Assembly: GCF_003967355.1 (NCBI RefSeq) | Contig: NZ_BIFH01000040.1 | Coordinates: 62,001-126,000, forward strand | From: Embleya hyalina | Lineage (GTDB): Bacteria > Actinomycetota > Actinomycetes > Streptomycetales > Streptomycetaceae | DNA: 64,000 nt | Direction: 5' to 3' | Part shown: positions 38,658-63,659 of the stretch, piece by piece | Position numbering within the stretch: position 1 is the stretch's first letter | Layout of the letters: each line of letters opens with the position of its first letter | Notes under the pieces: generated by a model | What the model was told of the DNA's origin: nothing | The model's database searches: none | Seen by the model: only the letters and a program-made list of their open reading frames with translations | Position numbers and translations under genes: made by a program

Positions 38658-38677
38658 TTCGTTTGAGCCCAAACCAT
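38658..38677. promoter_or_regulatory. Regulon dyad, copy 1
   Basis: TTCGTTTG-N4-CAAACCAT, 44 bases upstream of the glutamine-synthetase-like gene. One of seven copies of ATCGTTTG-N4-CAAACGAT in the window. Confidence 0.7.
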
Positions 38678-38750
38678 ATGAAGGTCGCAGGTGTCGCACA
38701 AGGGGTTGGGCAAGCCTTTTACGCACGTGACAACGCGGAGTGGGGGGCAT

Positions 38751-38770
38751 ATCGTACGGACCCAAACGAT
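38751..38770. promoter_or_regulatory. Regulon dyad, copy 2
   Basis: ATCGTACG-N4-CAAACGAT, 38 bases upstream of the acetoacetate-decarboxylase-like gene, facing copy 1 across the same divergent interval. Confidence 0.7.
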
Positions 38771-38808
38771 CCATTCGGCTCGGCTTCGGGCTCGCAGAGG
38801 GAGGCGCC

Positions 38809-39624
38809 ATGACCGGCGTACGCGGTGTACACGGTTTCTTCCACCCCAAGACCGGCACGGGCCGGTCGTCGATGATCCCCGCACCCCCGTGGCACTACTC
38901 CGGCGACCTGCTCACCGTCGAGTACCGCACCGACCCCGCCCGGGTGGCCGAACTGCTGCCCCCGCAACTCGAACTCGCCGACGAGGACCCCGGCGCGGTC
39001 GCGCTGATCTGGGCCGATTGGCAGTCCTGCTCGGCCGGGCGGGGCGAACTGCTCGACCCGGTGCGCGCGCAGTACAAGGAGTGCTTCGTGGTGGTGCGCT
39101 GCCGCTACGCGGGGGTGACCTACTCGCGCTGCGTGTACATCTGGGTGGACAAGGACTTCGCCATCGCGCGCGGGCTGCACCAGGGCTATCCGAAGAAGCT
39201 GGGCTCGATCCACCAGACCCGCCCGCACCCGTACGGCCCGGCGCCCCGGATCGAGGCGGGCGCGACGTTCGGTGCCACCCTGGCCGCCGCCGACCGGCGC
39301 CTGGCCGAGGTGGTGGTGACGCTGCGCGAGCCGGCGCCCACCAACGGCTTCGTCAACGGGCATCCGATGGCGCACCACCGCTGGTTGCCGTCGATCGCCC
39401 CGGGCGGGGGCCTGGCCCTGGACGAACTGGTGGTCACCGGCGCCGAGTCCGCCGAGGGCGGGCAGGCGTGGGCCGGCGACGCGGAGTTGACCCTGTTCGA
39501 GGCGCCCACGGAGGAACTGGCCCGGCTGGAGCCGATCGAGCCGATCGGCGCCTACTACCGCCAGGTCGGCGTGGTCTGGAACGGCGGCACGCTGCTGGCG
39601 AGCGGCGCGTCGGGCGCGCGGTAG
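38809..39624 (+). CDS. Acetoacetate decarboxylase-superfamily protein
   Basis: A 271-residue protein of the acetoacetate decarboxylase superfamily. The segment GLHQGYPKKLGSIHQTRPHPYG (from about residue 122) contains the paired lysines (129-130) where ADC forms its Schiff base. PPAPWHYSGDLLTVEY-like start and the YAGVTYSRCVYIWVD strand complete the fold. Members include true decarboxylases and Schiff-base hydratases/aldolases such as MppR, so the reaction is open. The ATG at 38809 follows AGAGGGAGG. It is preceded by regulon dyad copy 2 and divergent from the GS-P450 operon, which ties it to the same catabolic scheme. It ends at a symmetrical terminator shared with the permease gene. Confidence 0.88.
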   Translation: MTGVRGVHGFFHPKTGTGRSSMIPAPPWHYSGDLLTVEYRTDPARVAELLPPQLELADEDPGAVALIWADWQSCSAGRGELLDPVRAQYKECFVVVRCRYAGVTYSRCVYIWVDKDFAIARGLHQGYPKKLGSIHQTRPHPYGPAPRIEAGATFGATLAAADRRLAEVVVTLREPAPTNGFVNGHPMAHHRWLPSIAPGGGLALDELVVTGAESAEGGQAWAGDAELTLFEAPTEELARLEPIEPIGAYYRQVGVVWNGGTLLASGASGAR

Positions 39625-39644
39625 GCCCGGCGGCGGTACCCGCG

Positions 39645-39676
39645 CGAAGGACCCTGCCGATCGGCAGGGTCCTTCG
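39645..39676. terminator. Perfect 32-bp palindromic bidirectional terminator
   Basis: CGAAGGACCCTGCCGA and its exact complement without a spacer (functional loop GATC). It lies between the convergent decarboxylase-like and permease genes, 12-20 bases from each stop. Confidence 0.88.
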
Positions 39677-39687
39677 TGTGTCCGCGG

Positions 39688-41151
39688 TCAGCCGCGCCCC
39701 CGCCCGATGCCCGCGTAGACGTGCGGTCGGGCCGTGCGCAGGTACACCGCGAACAGCGCGCCGACCACCCCCGCGCCGAGCACCAGCGCGGGCAGCACCC
39801 AGCGCAGCGCGGAGCCCGAGTCGACACCGAGGAGTACGCCGAAGTTGTCCAGGGCGGCGACGAACACCACCGCGAGCAGTACCGCCGCGACGGCGGGCGC
39901 GAGCAACCGGCTCCACGCGTTCTCGCCGTCGGCGCCGTGCCGCAGGAAGAAGGCGATCACCGCGAGCGAGGTCAGCACCAGGAGCAACATCACGCCGAGC
40001 GCGCCCAGGTTGGTGAACCAGTTGAACAGGGTCGCCATCGGGTCGCGGTCGAGCACGACGAACACGATCACCACGGCCGCGGCGAGCACGGTCTGGGTGG
40101 CCGAACCCAGGTGCGGGGAGTCGGTGCGCGGGTGGGTGCGGCCCAGCGGCGTCGGCAGCACCCCCTCGCGACCGAGCGCGAAGAAGTAGCGGGCGACCGC
40201 GTTGTGGAAGGACAGCAGCGCGGCGAACAGGCTGGTGATCAGGAACACCTGGGCCACGTCGGCGAAACCCGAGCCGATCTGGTCGCCGCCGAGGACGAAG
40301 ATCAGGTTCGGCCCGTTCTCGGCCGCCGCCGCGACCGCCTTGTCGGTACCCGCCCCGCTGATCAGCGCCCAGGCGGTGATCGCGTACAGCACGCCGATCA
40401 CGCCGACCGAGATGTAGGTCGAGCGGGCCACGGTGCGCCGGGGATCCTTGCACTCCTCGCCGTAGATCGCGGCCGACTCGAAGCCGGTGAAGGAGGCCAT
40501 CACGAAGCAGAAGGCCGCGCCCATCGAGCCGGTGGTCAGCGCGTCCCAGGAGAAGGGGTGCAGCGACACGCCCTCGGGGGCGTGGCCGAACGCGCCGATG
40601 TCGAAGACCAGTACGGTGATCGTCTCCGCGACCAGCAGTGCGGCCAGCACCCGCGCGTTGAGGTCGATCCGCAGGTAGCCGAGGGTGCCGACGATCGCGA
40701 TGCCGACCAGGACGATCACCCACCAGTCGACGTGCCACCCGAACTTGGCGTCCAGGAAGTCGGCCGTGGTGAAGCCGAACAGGCCGTAGATGCCGATCTG
40801 CATGGCGTTGTAGGAGATCAGCGCGACGAACGCGGCGCCGAGGCCGGCCACCCGGCCCAGGCCCTGGGCCACGTAGGCGTAGAAGGCGCCCGCGCCGGTG
40901 ATCCGCCGGCTCATCGCCGCGTAGCCGACGCTGAAGACGGCGAGCAGGGCGGCCAGGACGAGGTAGGCCGCCGGTATTCCGGAGGTCTCGGTGACCGCGA
41001 GGCTCTGCGGGATGCCGCCGGCGGCGACGGTGAGGGGGGCGGAGGCCGCCACCACGAAGAAGACGATGTGTGCGACGCCGAGCGAGCCGCGGGAGGGTAC
41101 GGCCGGGTCGGAATCGGAGGAGTTGTTCGTCGACGCTTCTCTGACTGCCAT
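39688..41151 (-). CDS. APC-superfamily amino acid/amine permease
   Basis: A 487-residue permease with 12 predicted membrane segments. VFFVVAASAPLTVAAGGIPQSL is the TM1 unwound substrate motif. GAGAFYAYVAQGLGRVAG is the APC TM3 region, and FTGFESAAIYGEECKDPRRTVARST, near residue 215, is the APC TM6-loop signature. By family it imports an amino acid or amine by proton symport. The ATG at 41151 follows GGAGG. Two regulon dyads (41210, 41245) separate it from the divergent MarR gene. The uptake role for the pathway substrate is inferred from this shared control. Confidence 0.93.
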   Translation of the reverse strand: MAVREASTNNSSDSDPAVPSRGSLGVAHIVFFVVAASAPLTVAAGGIPQSLAVTETSGIPAAYLVLAALLAVFSVGYAAMSRRITGAGAFYAYVAQGLGRVAGLGAAFVALISYNAMQIGIYGLFGFTTADFLDAKFGWHVDWWVIVLVGIAIVGTLGYLRIDLNARVLAALLVAETITVLVFDIGAFGHAPEGVSLHPFSWDALTTGSMGAAFCFVMASFTGFESAAIYGEECKDPRRTVARSTYISVGVIGVLYAITAWALISGAGTDKAVAAAAENGPNLIFVLGGDQIGSGFADVAQVFLITSLFAALLSFHNAVARYFFALGREGVLPTPLGRTHPRTDSPHLGSATQTVLAAAVVIVFVVLDRDPMATLFNWFTNLGALGVMLLLVLTSLAVIAFFLRHGADGENAWSRLLAPAVAAVLLAVVFVAALDNFGVLLGVDSGSALRWVLPALVLGAGVVGALFAVYLRTARPHVYAGIGRGRG

Positions 41152-41209
41152 GTCCGGCGCCTCCGAGGGTGGGAGCGGATGGGGACCGGTGGGAGCGGGC
41201 GGGAACCCG

Positions 41210-41229
41210 TTCGTTTGGGCCCGTACGAT
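41210..41229. promoter_or_regulatory. Regulon dyad, copy 3
   Basis: TTCGTTTG-N4-CGTACGAT, 59 bases upstream of the permease start. Confidence 0.7.
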
Positions 41230-41244
41230 CTAGGAGTGTCGCCG

Positions 41245-41264
41245 ATCGTACGGATGCAAACAGG
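41245..41264. promoter_or_regulatory. Regulon dyad, copy 4 (degenerate right arm)
   Basis: ATCGTACG-N4-CAAACAGG, 84 bases upstream of the MarR start and 15 bases from copy 3. Suggests autoregulation of the regulator. Confidence 0.55.
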
Positions 41265-41348
41265 TCCTCACAAGAGCTAGATTTCACGGTGCACAGGGCG
41301 TATCGGGCCGGGGTCGGATACGCGCACGACTAGATAAGGCGGGGCACG

Positions 41349-41921
41349 TTGGTCGGCAAGCGGTCCATCACCGAGACGGAGAAGGCCGTTCGGGCCCGGC
41401 TGGGCGACATCCCGCTGCGGCGCGAGCAGATGGCCGCGGTGTCGAACATCTATCGGGCCGCCGCCGCGGTGCGCCAGCACCTGGAGAACTCGGTGCTGCG
41501 CGACGCGGAACTCACCTGGACCGCGTTCACGGTGTTGTGGGAGGTGTGGATCTGGGGCGAGAGCGAGACCCGGCACGTCGCCGAGGAGGCGGGCATCTCC
41601 AAGGGCACGCTCACCGGCGTGGCCCGCACGCTGGAGACGCGCGGGCTGCTCCATCGGGCGGCGCACGCCACCGACGGCCGGCTCGTGCTGCTCTCGCTGA
41701 CCCCGGCCGGCGAGGAGCTGATGGCCCGGGTCTTCCCGGCCTTCAACGCGGAGGAGGCCTTCGTCGCCGACGACCTGACCGCGGACGAATGCCTCACCCT
41801 GGCCGACGGCCTGCGCCGCATCGTGGCGCGGTTGGAGGCCAAGGGAGAGGAACGCCGCCAGGAACTCCTGGCCGGCGGCGAACCGAAGCCGAGGCGCGGG
41901 GGGCGGCGCCCGAAGGGGTAG
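41349..41921 (+). CDS. MarR-family transcriptional regulator
   Basis: A 190-residue winged-helix regulator. The HTH reads ETRHVAEEAGISKGTLTGVARTLETRGLLHR (about residues 75-107), followed by the wing ATDGRLVLLSLTPAGEEL. A Lys/Arg/Pro-rich C-terminal tail (KPRRGGRRPKG) is unusual. The start is TTG at 41349 with AAGGCGGGG upstream; the next Met would remove the first helix. It lies in the centre of the catabolic block, divergent from the permease, with two regulon dyads between. It is therefore the best candidate to bind ATCGTTTG-N4-CAAACGAT throughout the regulon (inference). Usually a ligand-released repressor. Confidence 0.92.
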   Translation: MVGKRSITETEKAVRARLGDIPLRREQMAAVSNIYRAAAAVRQHLENSVLRDAELTWTAFTVLWEVWIWGESETRHVAEEAGISKGTLTGVARTLETRGLLHRAAHATDGRLVLLSLTPAGEELMARVFPAFNAEEAFVADDLTADECLTLADGLRRIVARLEAKGEERRQELLAGGEPKPRRGGRRPKG

Positions 41922-42010
41922 GCGGGGTCGCGGGGTCGGGGCGGATGTCGGACGGGTCTGCTTCGCTCGGTGCGCCGCATCGAGCGGGCGGGTCCGGACG
42001 AGGAGGAAAC

Positions 42011-42388
42011 GTGGGTACGTGGGGCAGTGGCAACTTCGACAGCGATCCCGCCCATGAGCACTTGACGATGATCGTCGATCGGCTCGTCGACGAGGTCGCC
42101 GAGGTGATGGCGGCGGACGATCCGGTGCAGCTGGAGCCGGACGAGTACTGGGGTGTGGCGATCCCCTGCAACCTGGAACTGGTGTGCGCGCTGTACGACG
42201 CCGGCTATGTCGCCGACCGGATGCCCGCCGCCGAGGTGGTCGAGGGGTGGAAGCAGACCTTCGTGGGTGTCTGGGAGCGGACCATCGACGGTCTGGGGCC
42301 GTCGGAGGAGTGGAAACGGGAGCGGCGGGCGATACTGGTCGCCACGTTCGACCGCATGGCGCGGGCGTGTACCGAGGCCGCCCGGTAG
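42011..42388 (+). CDS. DUF4259 domain-containing protein
   Basis: A 125-residue protein beginning MGTWGSGNFDSDPAHEHL (GTG-initiated), the hallmark N terminus of DUF4259 proteins, followed by an all-helical body. The GTG at 42011 has the near-perfect ribosome site AGGAGGAAAC. Function unknown in the family. It lies 89 bases downstream of the MarR gene on the same strand without a regulon dyad, and converges with the PuuD-like gene. Its place in the catabolic block may be coincidental. Confidence 0.88.
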   Translation: MGTWGSGNFDSDPAHEHLTMIVDRLVDEVAEVMAADDPVQLEPDEYWGVAIPCNLELVCALYDAGYVADRMPAAEVVEGWKQTFVGVWERTIDGLGPSEEWKRERRAILVATFDRMARACTEAAR

Positions 42389-42419
42389 CACGCCGCGCGC
42401 CGTGTCGTGGTGCGGATGG

Positions 42420-43109
42420 TCAGTGCGTGGCCGCCTCGATCAGTGCGTCGAACAGGGCCTGTTGCCTCGGGTCGATGGCTGCGGTGTCCTCGGGGTGCCA
42501 CTGGATCGCGACGAACCAGCCCGCGGGGTCGACGAGTTCGACCGCCTCGACGATGCCGTCGGCGGCGGTGCCGGTGACCCGGAGCCCGGGGGCCGGGCGG
42601 TCGATCGCCTGGTGGTGGTAGCAGGAGACGTCCAGGTCCTCGGCGCCGGCGGCGCGGGCGGTGGTCGAGTCGGGGGTCAGCGTCACCGGGTGGACGACGT
42701 GGCGGTGGTGGACGGGCATGTCCTGGGACAGCGTGCCGCCGAGCGCCACATTGACCACCTGCAGGCCCCGACAGACGGCGAGGGTGGGCAGGCCGACGGC
42801 CAGCGCGTGGCGGGCGGCGGCGAGGTCGAAGGCATCCTGGTCGGCATCGACGTCGTACACCTCGTCATGCGTGGTGTCCGCGCCGTAGGTGCTCGGCGCC
42901 AGGTCGCCGCCGCCGGGCAGCAGCAGGCCGTCGGCGCGGGCCAACCGGGCCGCGGCACCGGCGGGTTCGGCCGGGTGCATCATGAACGGCTCGCCGCCCG
43001 CCCGGTACACCGCCTCGGCGAGGGCGCGGGCGGTCACCTCGGCGGCGTGGCGCAGGGCGGACGTGGTGGCGGCGAACCGGCAGGGGAGGGCTATCAGGGG
43101 GCGGGGCAC
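42420..43109 (-). CDS. Gamma-glutamyl-gamma-aminobutyrate hydrolase-like (PuuD family)
   Basis: A 229-residue class I glutamine-amidotransferase-fold hydrolase. The nucleophile Cys113 lies in LAVCRGLQVVN. The catalytic His205 and Glu207 are in QWHPED. LLLPGGGDLAPSTYG is the oxyanion strand. PuuD-type enzymes hydrolyse the gamma-glutamyl bond after oxidation of a gamma-glutamylated amine. The GTG at 43109 has CGGAG upstream. It is the second gene of a leftward operon, 106 bases after the PuuC-like aldehyde dehydrogenase, driven by the dyad at 44810. Together with the GS-like ligase and permease it reproduces a Puu-type gamma-glutamylation route. Confidence 0.92.
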   Translation of the reverse strand: MPRPLIALPCRFAATTSALRHAAEVTARALAEAVYRAGGEPFMMHPAEPAGAAARLARADGLLLPGGGDLAPSTYGADTTHDEVYDVDADQDAFDLAAARHALAVGLPTLAVCRGLQVVNVALGGTLSQDMPVHHRHVVHPVTLTPDSTTARAAGAEDLDVSCYHHQAIDRPAPGLRVTGTAADGIVEAVELVDPAGWFVAIQWHPEDTAAIDPRQQALFDALIEAATH

Positions 43110-43215
43110 GGGGGTCTCCGAAAATGCGGGGGAACGGTGGTGCGCTGCGGGGACGGCGGCCCGGCCGCTCGGGAGGAACCGCCGGGCGGGTCGGGGGAGT
43201 CGCCGGCCCTCGGTG

Positions 43216-44745
43216 TCACAGGCGGATCCAGGTGGTCTTGAGGTCGGTGTACTTGTCGAGCGCGTGCAGCGACTTGTCCCGGCCGTGGCCCGATTGTTTG
43301 ACGCCGCCGAACGGCACGTTGAGGCCGCCCTCCTCGTAGCAGTTGACCCAGACCGTGCCGGCGCGGACGGCCCGGGACAGGCGGTGCGCGGCGGAGAGGT
43401 CGGTGGTCCACACGCCCGCCGCGAGGCCGTACTCGGTCGCGTTGGCCAGACGGACCGCCTCGTCCTCGGTGTCGAACGTGAGTACCGCGAGCACCGGGCC
43501 GAACACCTCCTCGCGTGCGAGCGCCATGTCGGGGGTGACCCGGTCGAACACGGTCGGCTCCAGGTAGTGGCCCGGGCGATCGAGCCGGGTCCCGCCGGTG
43601 CGCAGCCGGGCGCCGGCGGCGTCGGCGCGGGCGATGTGGTCCCCGACCCGGGCCAGGTGCTCGGCGGTCACCAGCGCGCCCATCGTGGTGGCCGGGTCGA
43701 GCGGGTCGCCGACGCGCAGCGCGCGGGCCCGGTCGACCACCGCGTCCACCACCTCGTCGGCGATCGAGGAGTGCACGAGCAGCCGGGACGGCGCGGTGCA
43801 CATCTCGCCCTGGTTGAAGAAGATGCCCCAGGCCGCGCTCGCCGCGGCGGCCGGTATGTCGGCGTCGGGCAGCACGATGTGCGGGGACTTCCCGCCCAGT
43901 TCGAGCCAGACCCGCTTGAGGTTGGAGTCGGCGGCGTAGCGCAGGAAGTGCCGGCCGACGGCGGTGGAGCCGGTGAACGCGAGCACGTCGACGTCCGGGT
44001 GCAGACCCAGGGCGCGGCCCGTGGTCGGGCCCTCGCCGGCGATCACGTTGAACACCCCCGGCGGCAGGCCGGCCTCGCTCGCCAGGCGGCCCAGCCGCAG
44101 GGCGGACAGTGGTGACTGCTCGGCGGGCTTGAGCACGACGGTGCAGCCGGCCGCCAGTGCCGGAGCGACCTTCCAGGCGGCCATGGTGAGCGGGAAGTTC
44201 CACGGGACGACCGCCGCGACCACGCCCACCGGCTCGCGGGTGACCAGGGCCAGGGCGTCGGCGGGGGTCTGCGGCGCCTCGTCGACCAGCTTGTCGGCGA
44301 CCTCGCCGTACCAGCGGAACGTGGCCGCCACGGCGCGCAGTTCGATGTCGTACGCCTCGGTGATCGGCTTGCCCATCTCCAGCGAGACGGTCAGCGCGAG
44401 TTCGGCTCGGTGGGCCTCGACCGCGTCGGCGAGCCGGATCAGCGCACGGCCGCGTTCGGCCGGGGCGAGTCGGGGCCAGGGCCCGGCGTCGAAGGCGCGG
44501 CGGGCGGCGGCGACGGCGAGGTCGACCTCGTGCTGCCCGGCGCGGGCGGGTTCGGCGAGGGGGGTGCCGTCGCGCGGGGCGATCACGGTGAAGGTGTCGC
44601 CGCCGCCGGGGTGGTCCTCGCCGTCGATGTGATGGACCGTTACGGGACGGAGGCGGTCGGCGCGGTGCAGCCAGTCGTCGTGCGTGGGGTGGTCGCCGGG
44701 GGCGCTTGGGGCGCCCGGGTCGATCGGGTGGGGGTGCTCCGTCAT
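43216..44745 (-). CDS. Aldehyde dehydrogenase (PuuC-like)
   Basis: A 509-residue NAD(P)-dependent ALDH. VPWNFPLTMAAWKVAPALAAGCTVVLKPAEQSP is the cofactor region. FTGSTAVGRHFLRYAA is the NAD-binding Rossmann loop. LELGGKSPHIV carries the general-base Glu and FNQGEMCTAPSRLLVHSS the nucleophilic Cys. The N terminus is about 35 residues longer than usual and His/Pro-rich. The ATG at 44745 follows an AAGCGGA tract. It is the first gene of the operon with the PuuD-like hydrolase, with the regulon dyad 65 bases upstream. It would oxidise a gamma-glutamylated or free amino-aldehyde (inference from context). Confidence 0.93.
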   Translation of the reverse strand: MTEHPHPIDPGAPSAPGDHPTHDDWLHRADRLRPVTVHHIDGEDHPGGGDTFTVIAPRDGTPLAEPARAGQHEVDLAVAAARRAFDAGPWPRLAPAERGRALIRLADAVEAHRAELALTVSLEMGKPITEAYDIELRAVAATFRWYGEVADKLVDEAPQTPADALALVTREPVGVVAAVVPWNFPLTMAAWKVAPALAAGCTVVLKPAEQSPLSALRLGRLASEAGLPPGVFNVIAGEGPTTGRALGLHPDVDVLAFTGSTAVGRHFLRYAADSNLKRVWLELGGKSPHIVLPDADIPAAAASAAWGIFFNQGEMCTAPSRLLVHSSIADEVVDAVVDRARALRVGDPLDPATTMGALVTAEHLARVGDHIARADAAGARLRTGGTRLDRPGHYLEPTVFDRVTPDMALAREEVFGPVLAVLTFDTEDEAVRLANATEYGLAAGVWTTDLSAAHRLSRAVRAGTVWVNCYEEGGLNVPFGGVKQSGHGRDKSLHALDKYTDLKTTWIRL

Positions 44746-44809
44746 GGTGTCCGCTTTCGTCGGGGCGGTCGGCCGCGCGAGGCGACCGGAGGGCGGGGTC
44801 TCGGTGGTG

Positions 44810-44829
44810 ATTGTTTGGGAGCAAACGAT
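44810..44829. promoter_or_regulatory. Regulon dyad, copy 5
   Basis: ATTGTTTG-N4-CAAACGAT, 65 bases upstream of the PuuC-like gene. One of the two best-conserved copies. Confidence 0.75.
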
Positions 44830-44885
44830 ACAGCGGAACGGCCTTCCCGGGAGAGGGCTTGACCGTCGTGTTCGGCGCCGGCTAA

Positions 44886-44905
44886 ATTGTTTGGGGTCAA
44901 ACGAC
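44886..44905. promoter_or_regulatory. Regulon dyad, copy 6
   Basis: ATTGTTTG-N4-CAAACGAC, ending 14 bases before the start codon of the second aldehyde dehydrogenase, just upstream of its ribosome site. Binding here would block initiation of the five-gene rightward operon. Confidence 0.75.
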
Positions 44906-44919
44906 TTGGAGGGGTATCC

Positions 44920-46380
<1,461 letters not shown>

Positions 46381-46382
46381 CC

Positions 46383-47339
46383 ATGGGAGAGATCGTCGGC
46401 GCGGGCATCCTGGCCCACTCGCCCACCATCATGCTGCCCCCGGACGTGCGGTACGAGCTGAACGAGGGACGGGAGATCAGCCTGGTCCCGGCCCTGGCCC
46501 GGCTGCGCGCCGAGGTGTTCGAACGGCTCGACTACGACACCGTCGTGGTCTTCGACTCGCACTGGGCGACCACCGTCGAGTTCGTCATCGCCGCCCAGGC
46601 GCACCGCGCCGGGTTGTACACCTCGGAGGAACTGCCGCGCGGCATGCGGCAGATCCCCTACTCCTTCCCCGGCGACCCGGAACTGGCACACGCCACCGCC
46701 GGGTTCGCGGCCAGGCACGGCACCTGGATCACGCCGATCGAGGATCCGTTCCTGCCGATCCACTACGCCACCGTCAACCTGTGGCACCACCTCGGCGTCC
46801 CCGGCAAACGCTGGCTGGGCATCGGCTGCTGTCAGACCGCCGACGTCGAGGACAACCTGCGGCTCGGCCGGGCACTCGCCGACGGCATCGCGGCCACCGA
46901 CCGCAGGGTGCTCCTGATCGCGTCCGGCGCGTTCTCGCACACGTTCTGGAGCCTGCGCGAACTGCGCGACCACGAGGCGTCGGACCCGGTGCACGTGCGC
47001 ACCCCGCAGGGGCGCGCCGCCGACGAGCGGCGCATCGCCTGGATGGAGCGCGGAGACCACGCGAGCGTACTCGCGGGCATGCCGGACTTCCTGCGCCACA
47101 AGCCCGAGGCCCGCTTCGGGCACTACCTGATGATGCTCGGCGCGCTCGGCGAGGAGCGCTGCACCGCACCGGGGCGGCTGGTCGGCGAGTACGAGAACGC
47201 CACCGGCACCGGGCAGGCACACGTCTGGTTCGACCGGCCGGCGGGCGGCTGGACGGCGCCCGACGCACCCGCCTCGCGGCTCGCCGACCCCCATTCCCGA
47301 GTCGCCGACCCCCACACCTCCCGAGGACGAGCCGAATGA
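46383..47339 (+). CDS. LigB-type extradiol ring-cleavage dioxygenase (HpaD-like)
   Basis: A 318-residue class III extradiol dioxygenase. GAGILAHSPTIMLP near residue 6 and DSHWATTVEF near 60 supply Fe(II)-ligand His residues. HYATVNLWHHLG near 135 and SGAFSHTFWSLRELRDHE near 180 supply the remaining active-site His. The overall sequence is that of 3,4-dihydroxyphenylacetate 2,3-dioxygenases (HpcB/HpaD). It opens a catechol ring next to the hydroxyls. The ATG at 46383 starts 2 bases after the ALDH stop; an in-frame ATG at 46371 overlapping the ALDH is possible. The Pro/Ser-rich C terminus (after residue 295) is outside the conserved domain. Confidence 0.9.
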   Translation: MGEIVGAGILAHSPTIMLPPDVRYELNEGREISLVPALARLRAEVFERLDYDTVVVFDSHWATTVEFVIAAQAHRAGLYTSEELPRGMRQIPYSFPGDPELAHATAGFAARHGTWITPIEDPFLPIHYATVNLWHHLGVPGKRWLGIGCCQTADVEDNLRLGRALADGIAATDRRVLLIASGAFSHTFWSLRELRDHEASDPVHVRTPQGRAADERRIAWMERGDHASVLAGMPDFLRHKPEARFGHYLMMLGALGEERCTAPGRLVGEYENATGTGQAHVWFDRPAGGWTAPDAPASRLADPHSRVADPHTSRGRAE

Positions 47340-48187
47340 CCACCACCGAGTACCGCCGCATCCTGCTCGACGGCGCCGTCGTCGAGGTCGTCCGCGAAGG
47401 GGCCGAACTGGTCGCCGCCGACGGCCGACGGATCAAGGCGGCCGACGCGCACCACCTGCCGCCCGTCGCACCGGGCAAGATCGTCGCGGTGCACCTCAAC
47501 CACCGCAGCCGGGTCGAGGAGTTCGGCACCTCGCTGCCGTCCGCGCCGACCTACTTCCACAAGCCGACGTCGTCGTTGAACGCGCACGGCGGTGCGGTCG
47601 TTCGGCCGGCCGGGTGCAAATACCTCAACTACGAGGGCGAGATCGCGATCGTCATCGGCCGCACCTGCCGCAACATCGCCCCCGCCGACGCGGGCGCGTA
47701 CATCCGCGGGTACACCCTCGCCAACGACTACGGCCTGCACGACTTCCGGGACACCGACGCCGGCTCGATGTTGCGGGTCAAGGGCTCGGACACGCTGTGT
47801 CCGCTGGGCCCCGGTCTGGTCGAGGGCTGGGACTTCCGCGGCAAGGCGCTGCGTACCTACGTCAACGGTCTGGTGGTGCAGGAGGGTTCCACCGACGAGA
47901 TGGAGTGGGACATGCACTACCTCGTCGCCGACATCGCCCGCACGATCACGCTGGACCCCGGCGACGTGCTCCTGTCCGGCACCCCGGCCGGCTCGCGTCC
48001 CGTACAGCCGGGCGATGTGGTCGAGGTCGAGGCGGAGGGTCTGGGCCGACTGGCCAACCACATCGTCACCGGCCCGACCCCCATTCGTACCGACTGCGGC
48101 GCGCAGCCCACCGAGTCCGAAGAGGTGCGCTCCACGGCCCTCGGCGGCGACTGGGAGCTGCGCGGAATCCGCGCGCCCAGGCGGTGA
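47336..48187 (+). CDS. Fumarylacetoacetate hydrolase-family enzyme (HpaG-like)
   Basis: A 283-residue FAH-fold protein. KIVAVHLNHRSRVEEFG, YFHKPTSSLNAHGGAVVRP, LNYEGEIAIVIGRTCRN and GYTLANDYGLHDF contain the Glu/Asp metal ligands of the family. By family and position it is a 2-hydroxyhepta-2,4-diene-1,7-dioate isomerase / OPET decarboxylase. The ATG at 47336 overlaps the dioxygenase stop (ATGA), so the two are translationally coupled. It follows GAGGACGAG. Later lower-pathway enzymes (HpaF, HpaH, HpaI types) are not found in the window. Confidence 0.92.
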   Translation: MTTTEYRRILLDGAVVEVVREGAELVAADGRRIKAADAHHLPPVAPGKIVAVHLNHRSRVEEFGTSLPSAPTYFHKPTSSLNAHGGAVVRPAGCKYLNYEGEIAIVIGRTCRNIAPADAGAYIRGYTLANDYGLHDFRDTDAGSMLRVKGSDTLCPLGPGLVEGWDFRGKALRTYVNGLVVQEGSTDEMEWDMHYLVADIARTITLDPGDVLLSGTPAGSRPVQPGDVVEVEAEGLGRLANHIVTGPTPIRTDCGAQPTESEEVRSTALGGDWELRGIRAPRR

Positions 48188-48242: not shown

Positions 48243-48431
48243 GTGAAGGTCATCGTCGACATGGACCGGTGTCAGGACCACGGGCAATGCGTGTTCTCCG
48301 CGCCCGAGGTGTTCCGCATCAACGACGCCGGACGCCTGGAGTTCGTCGCCGAACCGGACGACACGCTGCGCGACGCGGTCGAGGACGCCGCCGACGTCTG
48401 CCCGTTGCAAGCCATCACGATCGAGGACTGA
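48243..48431 (+). CDS. Small ferredoxin, [3Fe-4S]-type
   Basis: A 62-residue ferredoxin. Cluster residues are Cys10-x2-His13-x2-Cys16 (CQDHGQC) and Cys53 in DVCPLQAI. The second Cys of a four-iron motif is replaced by His, as in several actinobacterial ferredoxins that serve P450s. GTG at 48243 follows GAAGGG. It lies directly before a ferredoxin reductase (3-base gap) and after the meta-cleavage genes, in the operon controlled by the dyad at 44886. It is the likely electron donor of the regulon's P450 at 36 kb, the only P450 in the window. Confidence 0.95.
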   Translation: MKVIVDMDRCQDHGQCVFSAPEVFRINDAGRLEFVAEPDDTLRDAVEDAADVCPLQAITIED

Positions 48432-48434
48432 GCG

Positions 48435-49616
48435 ATGGCCGGGCGTCGGGTGGTGGTCGTCGGCGCGTCCATGGGCGGTCTGCGGGCCGCCGAACAACTG
48501 CGCGCGGCCGGCTGGACCGGCGGCATCACCGTCGTCGGCGACGAGCCGCACATGCCGTACAACCGGCCGCCGTTGTCCAAGGACGTGCTCGCCGGCGACG
48601 TGACGCACGCGGCGGTCGCCTTTCGGCCACGCACGAGTTGCGCGGACGTCGACTGGCGGCTGGGCGAGGCGGTGACCGGGGTCGACCTGGAGGCGCGTCG
48701 CGTTCGGCTGGCGGGCGGATCGTCGTTGTCGTACGCGGGTCTGGTGGTGGCCACCGGGTTGCGTGCGCGCCGGTTGGGCTGCCCGGGGCCGGCGGTGGGG
48801 CGACACGTGGTGCGCACCCTCGACGACGCGCGCCGGCTGCGCGACGCCCTCGGTCCCGGGCGCCGGGTGGTGATCGTGGGTGCGGGCTTCATCGGCTGTG
48901 AGGTCGCGGCCACGGCACGCCTGTTGGGGGCCGAGGTGACGGTGGTGGCGCCGGAGGCGGAGCCGATGTACCGCCCGCTCGGCGCCGAACTCGGCGCGGC
49001 CCTGCGCCGGCGGCACACGGCTCGCGGGGTGCGCTTCGAACTCGGCCGCACGGTCGAGCGGTTGACGGGTGAGGGGCACGTCACCGGAGTGGTCCTGGAC
49101 GACGGCCGCACGCTCGCGGCCGACGCGGTGGTCGAGGCGATCGGCGCGGTCCCGAACACCGAATGGCTGGCCGGAAACAGCCTCGACCTCACCGACGGCG
49201 TGCGCTGCGACGCGGCACTGCGCGTCGAATCCCGCCCCGACGTGGTGGCCGTCGGGGACGTGGCCCGCTTCGCCAACCCGCGCTACGACGACGTGCCGCG
49301 CCGCGTGGAACACTGGAGCATCCCCACCGACACGGCCAGACACGCGGCCCGCACCCTGGCCGCCCACCTGTCCGACACCGCCCCGCCCGCCGCCCCCTTC
49401 GCCCCGCTGCCCGGCTTCTGGTCCGACCAATACGAGGACCGCCTCCAGTCCTACGGTGCCCCCGCCCTCGGCGCCACCGACATCCGCCTCCTCGAAGGCA
49501 CGTGGACCACCGCCTGCGCGGTCGGCTACCACCGCGACGACACCCTGGTGGGTGTGGTGTCCCTGACCCCCGGATCCCACCCCTTGTCCACCAAATACCG
49601 CAGCCGGCTCGACTGA
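48435..49616 (+). CDS. FAD-dependent ferredoxin reductase
   Basis: A 393-residue oxidoreductase of the putidaredoxin-reductase type. VVVVGASMGGLRAAEQLR is the FAD Rossmann motif, VVIVGAGFIGCEVAATAR (about residue 145) the NAD(P)H Rossmann motif, and VVAVGDVARFAN (about 270) the second FAD contact. The ATG at 48435 comes 3 bases after the ferredoxin stop. It would pass electrons from NAD(P)H to the adjacent ferredoxin and on to the P450. It ends the rightward operon at a strong terminator. Confidence 0.95.
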   Translation: MAGRRVVVVGASMGGLRAAEQLRAAGWTGGITVVGDEPHMPYNRPPLSKDVLAGDVTHAAVAFRPRTSCADVDWRLGEAVTGVDLEARRVRLAGGSSLSYAGLVVATGLRARRLGCPGPAVGRHVVRTLDDARRLRDALGPGRRVVIVGAGFIGCEVAATARLLGAEVTVVAPEAEPMYRPLGAELGAALRRRHTARGVRFELGRTVERLTGEGHVTGVVLDDGRTLAADAVVEAIGAVPNTEWLAGNSLDLTDGVRCDAALRVESRPDVVAVGDVARFANPRYDDVPRRVEHWSIPTDTARHAARTLAAHLSDTAPPAAPFAPLPGFWSDQYEDRLQSYGAPALGATDIRLLEGTWTTACAVGYHRDDTLVGVVSLTPGSHPLSTKYRSRLD

Positions 49617-52966: not shown

Positions 52967-52985
52967 TGGGACCCGGACCGACATC

Positions 52986-54170: not shown

Positions 54171-54737
54171 ATGGACCACGACGTGCGCATTCGGCACATC
54201 ACCGAAGGCGACTGGGACGACATCGTCGCGCTGGAAGCCGATACCTATGCCGACGGCGCACTGTCGGAGGGACGGGCCGCGCTCCGCTCGCGGGCCCGTT
54301 CCTCGCCGGCCACCTGCTTCGTGCTGGAGGTCGGCCGACAACTCGCGGGCTACGTCCTGTCGTTGCCCTACCCGGTGGGGCAATACCCGGACCTGGATCG
54401 GGAGGAGGAGGTGGTCTTCCACTCGCGCAACCTGCACCTGCACGACCTCGTGGTCGGCGAGGCGCACCGCGGCGACGGGTTGGCGGGCGAACTGCTGCGC
54501 CGGGTGACCACCGCGGCGCGCGCCAAGCGGTACCAGCGCATCTCCCTCGTCTCCGTCGGCGGCAGCGAGGGGTTCTGGTCGGCGCAGGGGTTCCACGCCC
54601 TGCGCGAGATCGCACTCCCCGCGAACTACGGCCCGGACGCGGTGTACATGTCCATGGCGGTGGCCGCGGACCCCCGCCCGGAGCGGCGCAACCCCTCGAC
54701 GATCCGTCGCGCGGATCACCCTCGGATGACGAAGTAG
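54171..54737 (+). CDS. GNAT-family N-acetyltransferase
   Basis: A 188-residue GNAT. LHLHDLVVGEAHRGDGLAGELLRRV (about residues 85-110) contains the acetyl-CoA pyrophosphate loop (R-G-D-G-L-A form of Q/RxxGxG/A). The preceding strand FVLEVGRQLAGYVLSLP is motif D/A. The C terminus (after about 165) is Arg/Pro-rich. The ATG at 54171 follows the PLP-enzyme TAG immediately, so translation is coupled. It likely acylates the amine produced by the neighbouring decarboxylase, or protects the host from the product (inference). Confidence 0.92.
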   Translation: MDHDVRIRHITEGDWDDIVALEADTYADGALSEGRAALRSRARSSPATCFVLEVGRQLAGYVLSLPYPVGQYPDLDREEEVVFHSRNLHLHDLVVGEAHRGDGLAGELLRRVTTAARAKRYQRISLVSVGGSEGFWSAQGFHALREIALPANYGPDAVYMSMAVAADPRPERRNPSTIRRADHPRMTK

Positions 54738-54746
54738 GCCGATCAC

Positions 54747-56018: not shown

Positions 56019-56061
56019 CCCGCGCGAGCCCGGTCCGTGGCCGCCGAGCCACGACACGGAC

Positions 56062-56218: not shown

Positions 56219-56260
56219 CCGCCCGATCCCATGGAGTGCCGTAACCCCGCGAGGAAACGC

Positions 56261-62200: not shown

Positions 62201-62773
62201 GCGGCGGTGACGGTGACGAACAGCCACCGGGAGGTGCCGCCTACGACGCTGCCGCCGACGACGGCTCCGCCGACTACGGCTCCGCCCACGACGATGCCGC
62301 CCACGACGGCTCCGCCCACGACGGCGCCTCCGACGACGGCTCCGCCCACGACCGCACCGCCGACGACGGCTCCACCGACGACCGCACCGCCCACGACGGC
62401 TCCGCCGACCACTGCTCCGCCGACCACTGCTCCGCCGACGACGGTGCCTCCGACGACCACTGCGCCTCCGACGACAACCGCGCCGCCCACGACGCGGCCG
62501 CCGACCACCGGTCCGCCGACGGCACCGATCGTGCCCCCGACGGAGTCGCCCGAGCCGACCGAGCCCACGAAGCCCACCGAGCCGACCCGGCCGACCGGGC
62601 CGTCGACACCGCCCGCCCTGTTGCCGTCCCCGCCCGCACCCACGCCCAAGCCGCTCCCTGGCACCGGCGTCGGCCTCTCCCCGATGCTGCTCGCGACCCT
62701 GGCCGCGGCGCTCACCGGAATCGGCTTCGTGCTGATCCGCGTCGGGGCACGCAGGCGCCGGAAGCAGCAGTAG
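56261..62773 (+). CDS. Giant LPXTG-anchored surface protein with DUF11-like and DUF5979-like repeats
   Basis: A 2,170-residue cell-wall protein. The signal peptide spans about residues 1-35. Residues about 40-1340 hold DUF11-like beta-sandwich units (for example TVRNTGTGVVPDPVVADPIPDLL). Residues about 1346-1990 hold six DUF5979-like repeats of roughly 105-110 residues, each opening LRVxKxVxG and closing with a NTFSTG-type strand. Residues about 1995-2125 are a Pro/Thr mucin-like stalk of PPTTA units. The C terminus has LPGTG (2132-2136), a hydrophobic segment and RRRRKQQ: a complete sortase signal. ATG 56261 follows GAGGAAACGC; an ATG at 56231 is less likely. DUF5979 units resemble Cna_B/SpaA stalk domains. 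Function is probably adhesion or a hyphal surface layer. No sortase gene is in the window. Confidence 0.92.
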   Translation: MRVHPRLNVACLTLVTAMVAGLFALPSRDGVSAAEDGRTRPAARKVVAADAVVGIQKKVTGATAPLEPGGVFSYELTASCSSLTTSCVGAAVEDVLPAGFDVTSLPMTTDTRTVSYDPATRRLVITFTEPLPSPPAPAGSTGLPAGASRNLAIGLRVPRETTFEDGTRITNTATIRADNADPAEASADVTVHIPREVRPITTKRWADGSAVARSNAWSTITLGVRNASSTSAQVTRLTVEDTTPATFDAFDLIGVGPVDRFPAGADRVRVLVCVKPIGTPCTDAEYVAGPLTAGPDVPLPPGVEAGKVTGVRLEFANAAGSALPYDATGGEVRMRLALRETVRSTGDPLDPATRTTIHNCAAGTALDPIAGSVAGAPACADFDILPNIATVTATKEFFSDTNGDFVADGAAVSGTRAPVTMVVGAGNTASFPVASLTITEPSGSAVSEFDRVDVTKLRVDFPRGAVAATLTVTCRDGSTPSPVPLTRPPDRQVVPNTGCPNGGPPSRVSITYTGTDAAGHGTIVPNATGGLALHGTLNARVDESDARDGVANCADAGATNPVDGSGSGSSTACTSLPLESPRTDIRQGKSVDQAELPPGTPVTFTLDLANEGNGAMDRPSITDPPDPTATGTVFDLARLTSLSVAYRYPSGLPIVLEVYDPAASAWVPYAAGDAALLGRARGVRARVEGGLPSRGRIILDVTVERRDGVPDGAEIHNCMQIGSAGTPIGGPACTGENTTTAPARTGGSVQKSLAPATVARPLPGVPSQEVDLRIRAENTGNINLKQLVVTDDDADFFDAADLLRIAGVSFPPGADQVRVDACTTACVDPGATWITGTATGDNTPGLPGGVAAADVRGLRFTFTSSRGGHDLVPRSDYPADGPCPQATVCLKVAARDSLRSAPGTPVPDTLADTASAAGESRLQQPGELFPFGDSTATLTLQAGTARLAVTKTPDSRIGPGETAPFTITVRNTGTGVVPDPVVADPIPDLLRFDESFAGPGGMPFRVTATGPGTSPPPVPTYEPQRDGTGRITKVIWRFTGTDLLPGAELKITFQVRLAPGVPGDSVIQNIAGAGSDRRPDLDCAPGSAREGTAVDDSANFGRGTYCTSRAEVTTLPGTAFEASKWVTGDPTLGLYNSVTHTYVALDSPACPLFKRAGVTYTQYPCTALVLPGQRFEYLIRAVNTGTEPGREVRVLDVFPYRGDTGVLLGNQQRGTEWVPRPLLTGAPELVGPGTPTTRYSTVASPCGTTIQTPSRPCAPGNWQSAHTPDATGVEMSVAFDPLLAPGGEILVRLPMSAPVDLREPGDPAIAWNSFAHSETVVRNGAAEELPVTEPPKVGIGMRFGNLRVDKAVVGLPDGLPPGPYTVAYQCTVTPAGGTPQVVREGTWEITPYTPMALVGVPAGANCRVWETDSAGAHSVELGEANALRAVITPARPDEEGQHLVITNEYRKASLRVAKTVTGAAAGEVGSGPFTVRVDCTLADRPLTGYPRNLVFAGAGLQTLDELPSGAHCTATEPVAGGAGTVTVTAGDSVGGAPDTAVVDSVPDRTASLTVTNDFPTGSLRVVKRIEGPGSAFADRTFRFHVACSFDGRADAVIRTLALKAPDLTGSLDDLPAGAECVVTEADPAGADRAPPPVGPITIRPGRDQADSVLVDFTNTFSTGSLTLNKRVAGAPADAPYVRDAVFGFRVTCIREAEGDGGSPAVAFVIRKRYELRAGASLHVPDLPIGARCWAEETATGGAAEVTIDHGNHADAVIVTKDAPNVVINAVNTFSTGKLRLAKQVTGPGAGFAAGREYTLLLTCVLDTGDGRVQTLVDRRPYSFDGAGQREVDLGYPLPTGARCRATESRTGGAGSVVVDHDTPDKAVTIRSDEPVTITAVNTFDVARLLVTKRVTGPAGDGRYTITVECVARDSDGGELPIVLPAGDARFTLTVDQSRTITVPAGARCTVEEVNRAPDTDVTFVDTDPSTPPGVVQVGGQAAVTVTNSHREVPPTTLPPTTAPPTTAPPTTMPPTTAPPTTAPPTTAPPTTAPPTTAPPTTAPPTTAPPTTAPPTTAPPTTVPPTTTAPPTTTAPPTTRPPTTGPPTAPIVPPTESPEPTEPTKPTEPTRPTGPSTPPALLPSPPAPTPKPLPGTGVGLSPMLLATLAAALTGIGFVLIRVGARRRRKQQ
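62239..62515 (+). repeat. Pro-Thr coding repeat of the surface protein stalk
   Basis: About 15 units of a 15-base repeat encoding PPTTA, with silent third-base differences, then PPTTT/PPTTR variants. Encodes the wall-spanning stalk; copy number is likely to vary by recombination. Confidence 0.9.
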
Positions 62774-62778
62774 GCCAC

Positions 62779-62816
62779 GGGTCCGCGTCCCGAGCAGATC
62801 TCCGGGACGCGGACCC
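62779..62816. terminator. Terminator of the surface-protein gene
   Basis: A 13-bp perfect stem (GGGTCCGCGTCCC and complement) with a 12-base loop, 5 bases after the stop. It may also stop the convergent leftward gene ending at 62889. Confidence 0.85.
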
Positions 62817-62888
62817 ACGCCCGAAGCGGCTCCCCGGCGAGCACCCGAACCCGGGCGCTCGCCGAGGGGTGACCCGGGCACCCGTTGC

Positions 62889-63581
62889 TCAGAGCTTGGC
62901 GACCTCCGCCAGGAACCCGTCCACCAGCGCGGCGGCCCGCTCCCGCGCACCCGCCTCGGCCCGCCGCAAGTCATCGACATCCAGACCGAGTTCGCCGGCC
63001 TGGGCGGCACCGCCGTGGGCCAACCACGCGGCCGCGATGTCCGGGGTGACCTCCGGATGGAACTGCACGCCCATCGACCGGCCGACGACGTACGCCTGGG
63101 GCCCGACCGTCGAGCGGGCGATCTCCCGGCCACCCGGCGGGACGGTGAAGCGGTCGAAGTGCCACTGGTACCAGGGCCCGGCGGCGACCAGGTTCGGCTC
63201 GTCGGTCTCGATCCGATGCCACCCGAGCTCGTACTCCGAGGCCCGCTCGACCGTGCCGCCGAGCGCCGCGCTCAGTGCCTGGGCGCCGAAGCAGATGCCC
63301 AGGACCGGGACGTCCGCCGCGACCGCCTCGCGCAGCAGGTCGAGTTCGTCGCCCACCCAGGTGCCTATCGTCGCGGTGTCGTAGACCGACCACGGCGCGC
63401 CGAGCACCACGACCACGTCGAAGTCGGTCGCGCGCGGGAAGGCGAACCGGACGTCGGGGGAGTGGAAACGTTCGTCGGGGACGACGGTCACGTCGTGCGC
63501 ATCGAAGCCGCGTTCGGCCAGCCGCATGCCGACGAATCCCGCGTGTGAGGGATGGTCGTGGCGAATGATCAAGGCACGCAC
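62889..63581 (-). CDS. Class I glutamine amidotransferase-like hydrolase
   Basis: A 230-residue GATase-1 protein. The nucleophile is in LGICFGAQALSAALGG, and the His-Glu pair in MGVQFHPEVTPD. The N-terminal half (MRALIIRHDHPSHAGFVG) matches stand-alone GuaA-like/YLR126C-type GATases. It has no synthetase partner next to it. The GTG at 63581 follows GGAGAG. It is divergent from an amidohydrolase gene across an interval containing regulon dyad copy 7, so it is probably co-regulated with the 36-49 kb catabolic block. In aniline-type pathways a GATase-like protein works with a GS-like ligase on gamma-glutamylanilide, which is a tempting parallel (inference). Confidence 0.92.
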   Translation of the reverse strand: MRALIIRHDHPSHAGFVGMRLAERGFDAHDVTVVPDERFHSPDVRFAFPRATDFDVVVVLGAPWSVYDTATIGTWVGDELDLLREAVAADVPVLGICFGAQALSAALGGTVERASEYELGWHRIETDEPNLVAAGPWYQWHFDRFTVPPGGREIARSTVGPQAYVVGRSMGVQFHPEVTPDIAAAWLAHGGAAQAGELGLDVDDLRRAEAGARERAAALVDGFLAEVAKL

Positions 63582-63639
63582 CGGAGCTCTCCTTCCGTCA
63601 ATCCGGCCCGAGGTCTTGTGGCGGCCGGCTTCGATCCAT

Positions 63640-63659
63640 ATCGTTTGGCCTCAAATAAT
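63640..63659. promoter_or_regulatory. Regulon dyad, copy 7 (distal)
   Basis: ATCGTTTG-N4-CAAATAAT, in the divergent interval between the GATase-like gene (58 bases) and the amidohydrolase gene (77 bases), 18.7 kb from copy 6. Confidence 0.65.

What the first reader, a model, noticed from the sequence alone, without database searches (positions are those of the whole stretch)
38658..63659. Seven-copy operator defines a local regulon
The dyad ATCGTTTG-N4-CAAACGAT occurs at 38658, 38751, 41210, 41245, 44810, 44886 and 63640. The spacing between half-sites is always 4 bases. Every copy lies in a divergent promoter interval, 14-84 bases from a start codon, and none was noticed inside a gene. It links a GS-like ligase, P450, ADC-like protein, permease, MarR, PuuC/PuuD-like enzymes, a ring-cleavage operon with ferredoxin/reductase and, 19 kb away, a GATase-like protein and an amidohydrolase. 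The MarR protein encoded at 41349, flanked by two copies, is the best candidate regulator.
Basis: partly seen in the sequence, partly recalled or inferred. Interest (0 to 1): 0.75.

Follow-up and report, generated by a model that had tools for sequence, protein, structure and literature searches.

The report
MarR regulon for aromatic-amine breakdown
A repeated 20-base switch site in this soil actinomycete marks a widely conserved set of genes that probably breaks down tyramine- or dopamine-like amines by first capping them with glutamate, a route for which we found no published description.

Summary
The seven sites are real: imperfect copies (1-4 mismatches) of ATCGTTTG-N4-CAAACGAT in four divergent promoter gaps. 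An eighth strong copy lies on another contig, 17 bases before a tyrosine-decarboxylase-like gene. In 62 named loci found through the MarR protein, a matrix of the eight sites hits 281 places against 1 in the reversed control. Sites precede first genes of operons (GSL 41 of 41, permease 20 of 20) and not the inner genes HPAD, HPAG or P450 (0 of 44, 0 of 44, 0 of 29). The ring-cleavage operon carries the site in 33 of 34 family genomes that have it, including five where it lies 66 kb to 6.9 Mb from marR; the 34th contig is too short to tell. The MarR regulon is well supported; binding is untested. Best functional reading: catabolism of a gamma-glutamyl-capped aromatic amine. Glutamylation, extradiol cleavage and an MppR-like retro-aldol would yield pyruvate and gamma-glutamyl-aminobutyraldehyde, for PuuC and then PuuD. 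Streptomyces dysideae has decarboxylase, HpaE/D/G-, MppR-, PuuC- and PuuD-like genes in one run. Substrate and enzyme steps are inferred.

The parts
38658..38677 (+). operator copy 1 (GSL promoter side), TTCGTTTGAGCCCAAACCAT
38751..38770 (+). operator copy 2 (ADC-like promoter side)
41210..41229 (+). operator copy 3 (permease promoter side)
41245..41264 (+). operator copy 4 (marR promoter side; weakest copy)
   Evidence: conserved in Embleya and Yinghuangia loci
44810..44829 (+). operator copy 5 (puuC-like promoter side)
44886..44905 (+). operator copy 6 (hpaE-like promoter side, 14 bp from ATG)
63640..63659 (+). operator copy 7 (GATase / amidohydrolase gap)
35960..37246 (-). cytochrome P450, follows GSL; proposed to make the catechol
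   Evidence: role inferred
37256..38614 (-). GSL: glutamine-synthetase-like amine gamma-glutamylase
   Evidence: PF00120; catalytic residues kept, column of E. coli Glu327 replaced
38809..39624 (+). ADC/MppR-like Schiff-base enzyme; proposed hydratase / retro-aldolase
   Evidence: role inferred
39688..41151 (-). APC-type amino acid/amine permease
41349..41921 (+). MarR-family regulator, distantly HpaR-like; proposed repressor of all sites (TTG start)
42420..43109 (-). PuuD-like Peptidase_C26 gamma-glutamyl hydrolase
43216..44745 (-). PuuC-like aldehyde dehydrogenase
44920..46380 (+). HpaE-like semialdehyde dehydrogenase
46377..47339 (+). HpaD-like (LigB) extradiol dioxygenase (HPAD)
47336..48187 (+). 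HpaG-like FAH-family isomerase/decarboxylase (HPAG)
48246..48431 (+). single-cluster ferredoxin (start codon may be 48243)
48435..49616 (+). ferredoxin reductase
62889..63581 (-). class I GATase (GAT), a second possible gamma-glutamyl hydrolase; the gene caller put the start at 63527
   Evidence: operator in 15 of 18 relatives
63737..64000 (+). start of amidohydrolase (AMH, Amidohydro_3), followed beyond the window by an LLM oxidoreductase

Best explanation
The sites are operators of the MarR protein encoded at 41349, most likely a ligand-released repressor. It controls a dispersed catabolic regulon for a 2-arylethylamine (tyramine or dopamine type). Proposed route: a permease imports the amine, or a decarboxylase on another contig makes it from tyrosine or DOPA. 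GSL caps the amine with glutamate. The P450 with ferredoxin and reductase makes the catechol where needed. The HpaD-like enzyme opens the ring, the HpaE-like enzyme oxidises the semialdehyde, and the HpaG-like enzyme isomerises and decarboxylates. The MppR-like ADC protein hydrates and retro-aldol cleaves. Because the capped side chain is CH2CH2-NH-Glu and not CH2COOH, the aldehyde released would be gamma-glutamyl-4-aminobutyraldehyde, which PuuC and PuuD turn into glutamate and GABA. Shown by computation: the sites, their conservation, the gene set, and the link between sites and operon starts. Inferred: MarR binding, ligand, repression, substrate and every enzymatic step. I give about 0.9 to the regulon, 0.85 to this MarR as its regulator and 0.55-0.6 to the pathway.
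For: Regulon. The ring-cleavage operon has a site at 19.2 or more in all 29 genomes whose upstream DNA I fetched (5, 15, 9) and in 4 more seen, so in 33 of the 34 genomes with the gene at 65% identity or more; five of these have it 66 kb to 6.9 Mb from marR and six on a different contig (contig breaks may hide nearness). Cognate regulator: 34 of 34 such genomes hold the MarR ortholog. Pathway: a decarboxylase under the eighth operator, in the marR locus in 12 of 62 named loci, and in L102 and L062 in one co-directional run HpaE-HpaD-HpaG-decarboxylase-ADC-PuuC-PuuD. GSL keeps 11 ATP/Glu/metal residues in 42 of 42 sequences while the column of E. coli Glu327 is Leu in 36 of 42. The ADC protein's best solved relative is MppR (4jm3); PMC7820114 describes MppR as an aldolase for pyruvate and an aldehyde and proposes related archaeal proteins for phenol meta-cleavage (passages). 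PuuC- and PuuD-like families recur, and I recognised no HpaF/H/I or amine-oxidase family among the recurrent representatives (families in 4 or more loci, read by eye, five of them also by HMM). No HpaI match in the window genome at E<=1e-5 (genome 97.9% complete). Decarboxylase (12 loci) and the two permease families (26 loci) never share a locus of up to 20 kb, as expected for alternative amine supplies.
Against: No binding, expression or growth data. The 62 loci were found through MarR, so MarR's presence there is by construction, and many are closely related species. No pathway enzyme reaches an NCBIfam equivalog cut-off. Only 3 of 14 decarboxylase orthologs at 74% identity or more have a strong site next to them, though 12 of the 14 genomes hold MarR (in a fourth, G003, the gene lies beside marR and a weak site lies between them), so the gene is often outside the regulon. 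The P450's best solved relatives are CYP125/CYP124 types, named for steroids and lipids; six of 14 genomes with the decarboxylase near marR have the ring-cleavage gene but no P450 match at E<=1e-100, which needs DOPA as entry or another hydroxylase. PuuD-like score is weak (70 bits against a cut-off of 266). In the column of E. coli Asp50, GSL has D or E in 39 of 42, so not every feature of the ammonium site is lost, though that loop aligns poorly. GATase, amidohydrolase and LLM oxidoreductase have no assigned step. GABA transaminase genes beside some Actinomadura clusters carry no operator (0 of 8) and also occur near marR where the pathway genes are absent (L084, L087).
Confidence: 0.6

Rival explanations
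1. The regulon is an ordinary homoprotocatechuate route: tyramine loses its amine early (for example by P450 oxidation of the capped amine giving glutamine and 4-hydroxyphenylacetaldehyde, oxidised by the PuuC-like enzyme), and HpaD/E/G act on homoprotocatechuate.
For: HpaE and HpaD models are the best NCBIfam hits of their proteins and HpaG the second; the PuuC-like enzyme also matches phenylacetaldehyde dehydrogenase models; HpaH-like and HpaB-like proteins exist elsewhere in the genome.
Against: No HpaI match in the genome; HpaH and HpaB matches are below cut-off and on other contigs; no HpaF/H/I family recognised among recurrent neighbours; it leaves PuuD unexplained; HpaD-like score 120 against a cut-off of 316.
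Confidence: 0.2
2. The same regulon serves another glutamyl-capped aromatic amine (benzylamine, aminophenol or methoxylated phenethylamine type); the P450 may remove a methyl group.
For: P450 and decarboxylase never share a locus (P450 in none of the 12 decarboxylase loci), so the P450 may serve another amine; a GS-like enzyme with broad aromatic-amine range is known (PMC11335346, passages); aminophenol dioxygenases are the next solved relatives of the HpaD-like enzyme.
Against: Five of 14 genomes with the decarboxylase near marR do have the P450 elsewhere. The decarboxylase resembles tyrosine decarboxylases, and a two-carbon side chain is what makes PuuC and PuuD fit.
Confidence: 0.15
3. The sites are bound by a different regulator and MarR is only a target.
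For: marR itself carries the site in 48 of 62 loci, as a mere target would.
Against: MarR is present in all 34 family genomes that hold the ring-cleavage gene, whether near or far. PucR and LysR genes occur only in subsets.
Confidence: 0.07

Closest known systems
HpaR / hpa-meta regulon (E. coli W, Yersinia; PMC7180172, abstract and passages)
   Same: MarR-family repressor with palindromic operators with a 4-bp spacer on a homoprotocatechuate meta-cleavage operon; one of two overlaps the -10 element
   Different: Half-sites TTAA there, TTTG/CAAA core here; the regulon here adds amine glutamylation, PuuC/PuuD, P450 and an MppR-like enzyme; HpaR score 43.9 against a cut-off of 121.2
E. coli Puu pathway (puu genes)
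   Same: GS-like ligase, PuuC-like and PuuD-like enzymes ending in Glu + GABA (reaction order recalled)
   Different: No PuuB recognised among recurrent families; the aldehyde would come from a ring-derived retro-aldol and not from oxidation of putrescine
Ethanolamine utilisation by GlnA4 in Streptomyces coelicolor (PMC6529630, passages)
   Same: GS-like gamma-glutamylase, aldehyde dehydrogenase, glutamine amidotransferase, transporter and a negative regulator
   Different: No aromatic chemistry
1-Naphthylamine and aniline degradation by NpaA1/AtdA1 (PMC11335346, passages)
   Same: Aromatic amine is glutamylated before ring oxygenation
   Different: There the capped amine is oxidised to a dihydroxy compound without the cap; here the cap is proposed to persist until PuuD
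MppR-related proteins in archaeal phenol meta-cleavage (PMC7820114, passages)
   Same: ADC-superfamily proteins proposed to take part in a meta-cleavage pathway through aldolase activity
   Different: Different organism, substrate and gene set; 21-29% identical to MppR there

Membership tests
MarR family | MarR winged-helix domain | tested here: met
   PF01047 39.9 bits against a cut-off of 24.6
MarR family | palindromic operator near promoters, including its own | tested here: met
   site within 300 bp upstream of marR in 48 of 62 loci
MarR family | DNA binding relieved by ligand | not testable with these tools
   needs gel shift
HpaR | equivalog score | tested here: not met
   43.9 against 121.2 bits
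Homoprotocatechuate (hpa-meta) pathway | HpaD, HpaE, HpaG equivalogs | tested here: not met
   120, 521 and 210 bits against 316, 638 and 276
Homoprotocatechuate (hpa-meta) pathway | HpaI aldolase | tested here: not met
   no match at E<=1e-5 in the window genome; the control rang in 2 of 14 known genomes, none over cut-off
Homoprotocatechuate (hpa-meta) pathway | HpaH hydratase and HpaB hydroxylase equivalogs | tested here: not met
   best 206.9 against 351.5 and 308 against 480.2, on other contigs
Puu pathway | PuuC and PuuD equivalogs | tested here: not met
   553 against 850 and 70.3 against 266 bits; Peptidase_C26 domain itself met, 171 against 20.5
Puu pathway | PuuB gamma-glutamylputrescine oxidase | tested here: inconclusive
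   not recognised among families recurring in 4 or more loci; no direct model search run
GS-like amine gamma-glutamylases (PuuA / GoaS type) | GS fold with catalytic core kept | tested here: met
   PF00120 327 bits; 11 core residues in 42 of 42 (residue roles recalled)
GS-like amine gamma-glutamylases (PuuA / GoaS type) | loss of the ammonium-site residues | tested here: inconclusive
   Glu327 column Leu 36, Thr 4, Ile 1, Ala 1 of 42, but Asp50 column D/E in 39 of 42
GS-like amine gamma-glutamylases (PuuA / GoaS type) | PuuA (GGputSyn) equivalog score | tested here: not met
   254.8 against 650 bits; gln_synth_III 309.1 against 469.6
GS-like amine gamma-glutamylases (PuuA / GoaS type) | activity on an aromatic amine | not testable with these tools
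   needs an enzyme assay
MppR-like ADC superfamily | ADC family domain and Schiff-base lysine region | tested here: met
   PF06314 200 bits; the Pro-Lys of MppR is aligned and conserved in 98% or more of 41 sequences; which lysine is catalytic is recalled
MppR (enduracididine enzyme) | equivalog score | tested here: not met
   187 against 380 bits

The most novel reading that the evidence does not exclude
A new catabolic pathway in actinomycetes in which an aromatic monoamine is capped with glutamate and the cap is carried through hydroxylation, extradiol ring cleavage and an MppR-type retro-aldol. It joins aromatic meta-cleavage to the Puu route at gamma-glutamyl-aminobutyraldehyde, so that tyrosine- or DOPA-derived amines yield pyruvate, glutamate and GABA, all under one MarR repressor whose operators can lie far apart on the chromosome.
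Probability: 0.5. Interest if true: 0.78.

Novelty: new variant of a known kind. Interest (0 to 1): 0.62.

Why it matters
It would give a function to a gene set conserved from Embleya and Streptomyces to Actinomadura, Nonomuraea and Pseudonocardiaceae, with an operator that can be used to find further members. It would suggest a catabolic role for an MppR-like ADC-superfamily protein, and show how glutamyl capping can keep a reactive amine tethered while its ring is opened. Each step can be tested with purified enzymes and commercial amines.

Tried and rejected
Rejected: chance occurrence of the motif. Rejected: the TTTGGCCTCAA matches at C48, C26 and C43 as regulon members; they form a 26-bp tandem repeat (CAGCCCGGCCGGCG-YTTGAGGCCAA); the many other one-mismatch core matches were not looked at one by one. 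Weakened: GABA transaminase as a regulon member (operator 0 of 8). Weakened: the decarboxylase as a universal member. The tyramine and gamma-glutamyl paper searches showed no paper describing this pathway; one search showed 20 of 23 hits and 10 of 17, and the library holds open-licence papers only. I saw listings, and passages of PMC7820114, PMC10367076, PMC6529630, PMC7180172 and PMC11335346; nothing was read in full. The searches on MppR and aldolases and PauA7 gave mostly unrelated papers. Structure prediction was not used because sequence matches already named the folds.
Full report
OBSERVATION. The stated dyad was searched in the window with up to 3 mismatches: six of the seven sites match, 0.04 expected. 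The seventh (41245) has four mismatches by inspection. None is perfect; the spacer is 4 bases in all. All seven lie in four divergent gaps: GSL/ADC-like, permease/marR, puuC-like/hpaE-like and GATase/amidohydrolase, 14-84 bases from a start codon with the starts I assign. Each of the three paired gaps fits one site per promoter. A matrix made from these seven plus the eighth site below finds exactly these seven in the window at score 9 or more; being built from them, that is a check on specificity and not on discovery. In 20 first-order resamples of the window there were 9 hits at 12 or more and 1 at 18 or more in all.

GENOME. The window is part of a 12.05 Mb genome. A pattern search of the whole genome (113 places over both orientations, 22 in the backward control) lists six window sites with 0-1 mismatches, then 2-mismatch places, among them CTTGTTTGGCACCAAACAAT on contig C13. 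By matrix the six window sites and the C13 site score 26.5-32.1; the other 2-mismatch places score 19.0 or less, and the window copy at 41245 scores 19.1. The C13 site ends 17 bases before a PLP-dependent decarboxylase. That protein's best models are tyrosine decarboxylases, below cut-off, and its best solved relatives are a non-canonical aromatic amino acid decarboxylase and other decarboxylases. A looser core pattern is common in the genome (373 places per strand against 271 in its control).

PHYLOGENETIC FOOTPRINT. The MarR protein brought in 62 named loci. Over 1.17 Mb the matrix gives 281 hits at 10 or more, against 1 in the reversed sequences; 272 of the 281 are outside called genes. For genes with at least 320 bases upstream, a site (12 or more) within 300 bases was found for GSL 41 of 41, permease 20 of 20, hpaE-like 37 of 45, ADC-like 30 of 39, marR 48 of 62, puuC-like 25 of 30, LLM 19 of 24, GATase 15 of 18, amidohydrolase 5 of 6, ferredoxin 4 of 16, reductase 4 of 14, PuuD-like 4 of 32, second permease family 2 of 6, decarboxylase 2 of 12; HPAD 0 of 44, HPAG 0 of 44, P450 0 of 29; GabT 0 of 8, PucR 0 of 7, SSADH-like 0 of 10, carboxylase-like c15 0 of 8; unlabelled genes 22 of 465. 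Gene calls come from a simple codon-usage caller trained on window genes. The consensus of 237 hits at 18 or more is near-invariant at T5, G8, C13 and A16 of the 20 positions.

LINK TO MARR, FREE OF THE SEARCH BIAS. In 297 genomes of the family (an even sample), 46 match the MarR at the E-value used; 43 hold an ortholog at 68% identity or more, with the next full matches at 37% or less and one partial match at 53%. The HpaD-like protein at 65% or more is in 34 genomes, all 34 with the MarR ortholog; two more at 53-56% lack it. In 12 of the 34 the ring-cleavage gene is not on record near marR: 66 kb to 6.9 Mb away in 5, on another contig in 7, where assembly breaks may hide nearness. I fetched the upstream DNA in 29 of the 34: all 29 have a site at 19.2 or more (5, 15, 9), and 4 more show it, so 33 of 34. 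This includes all 5 far cases and 6 of the 7 on other contigs; the remaining one (G031) has a short contig with no site in it. This supports control in trans.

GENE SET. Families in the 62 loci (after taking off the window genome's own extra loci): HpaE-like 45, HpaD-like 44, HpaG-like 44, GSL 41, ADC-like 40, PuuD-like 33, PuuC-like 30, P450 29, LLM 24, permease 20, GATase 18, ferredoxin 16, reductase 15, decarboxylase 12, amidohydrolase 7. Decarboxylase and either permease family never share a locus (12 and 26 loci), nor do decarboxylase and P450. In L102 (Streptomyces dysideae) and L062 one co-directional run reads HpaE, HpaD, HpaG, decarboxylase, ADC, PuuC, PuuD with gaps of -8 to 184 bases. 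In the window genome amidohydrolase and LLM genes follow the seventh site as a likely operon.

ENZYMES. No pathway enzyme reaches an NCBIfam equivalog cut-off, as expected for relatives with a changed substrate, though this alone proves nothing. GSL keeps the catalytic core in 42 of 42 and has Leu in 36 of 42 at the column of E. coli Glu327, where PuuA has Tyr; the Asp50 column is still D or E in 39 of 42 (residue roles recalled). PMC11335346 says that amide synthetases of its kind lost a GS flap glutamate (which it numbers 357) and the catalytic Asp 50; by my alignment Glu357 is kept, Glu327 is lost and the Asp is mostly kept. The ADC-like protein is closest to MppR among solved structures. 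MppR is described as condensing pyruvate with an aldehyde, and related archaeal proteins are proposed to take part in phenol meta-cleavage (PMC7820114, passages). That other solved relatives are pyruvate aldolase-dehydratases is recalled.

MECHANISM. Carbon counting gives the key idea. In the homoprotocatechuate route (steps recalled) the side chain and two ring carbons end as succinic semialdehyde. If the side chain is CH2CH2-NH-gamma-Glu, the same steps end as gamma-glutamyl-4-aminobutyraldehyde, the substrate named for E. coli PuuC; PuuD then frees GABA and glutamate (products as annotated). This explains why PuuC- and PuuD-like genes sit with ring-cleavage genes without a recognised PuuB, and would make HpaI dispensable: none matches in the genome. 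HpaH- and HpaB-like proteins occur elsewhere, below cut-off. Site positions close to start codons suit a repressor that blocks transcription; HpaR uses N4-spaced palindromes on its operon, one overlapping the -10 element (PMC7180172, passages).

WEAK POINTS. Only 3 of 14 close decarboxylase orthologs carry a strong site. Of 14 genomes in which the decarboxylase lies near marR, five have a P450 match at E<=1e-100 and nine do not; six of those nine have the ring-cleavage gene, so hydroxylation may be unnecessary (DOPA entry) or done by another enzyme. P450 function is unproven; its best solved relatives are CYP125/CYP124 types. GATase, amidohydrolase and LLM oxidoreductase have no step. The small protein at 41957-42388 matched no family and, among the loci, hit only the window genome and one other Embleya genome (L013).

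VERDICT. The regulon is well supported and larger than reported. The pathway is the best reading, unproven. The paper searches I ran showed no description of it in a library of open-licence papers.

Noticed in passing
window 30745-35569 (-): Lanthipeptide locus: LanB-type dehydratase (Lant_dehydr_N and _C), LanC-like cyclase, and a 60-aa ORF at 35387-35569 with a Ser/Thr/Cys-containing tail that may be the precursor (the ORF matched no Pfam family).
   Followed up: partly
window 50547-56018 (+): A five-gene run: PhyH-like dioxygenase, DUF6271 protein, PLP decarboxylase related to LysA, GNAT acetyltransferase, MFS transporter; may be a small biosynthetic cluster.
   Followed up: partly
window 56231-62773 (+): 2180-aa probable surface protein with DUF11 and six DUF5979 stretches, a long TTAPPTT-like repeat and an LPGTG-like C-terminal end (seen in the translation).
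   Followed up: partly
L192 about 3965-3991 and 6917-6943; L193 about 2952-3187; L194 about 2276: 26-bp tandem repeat CAGCCCGGCCGGCG-YTTGAGGCCAA on three contigs of the genome; its core mimics the operator.
   Followed up: partly
L008 2516-3430 (+): F420-type LLM oxidoreductase just after the amidohydrolase; in relatives a site precedes it in 19 of 24 cases, so it probably belongs to the regulon, function unknown.
   Followed up: partly
G000 contig C42 84715-85482 and 100360-101784: HpaH-like and HpaB-like genes about 15 kb apart; possibly a separate aromatic pathway.
   Followed up: no
L102, L062 genomes (G308, G302): Two copies of the HpaD-like gene in one genome, one in the decarboxylase cluster and one a few kb from a P450, suggesting two parallel versions of the pathway.
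   Followed up: partly
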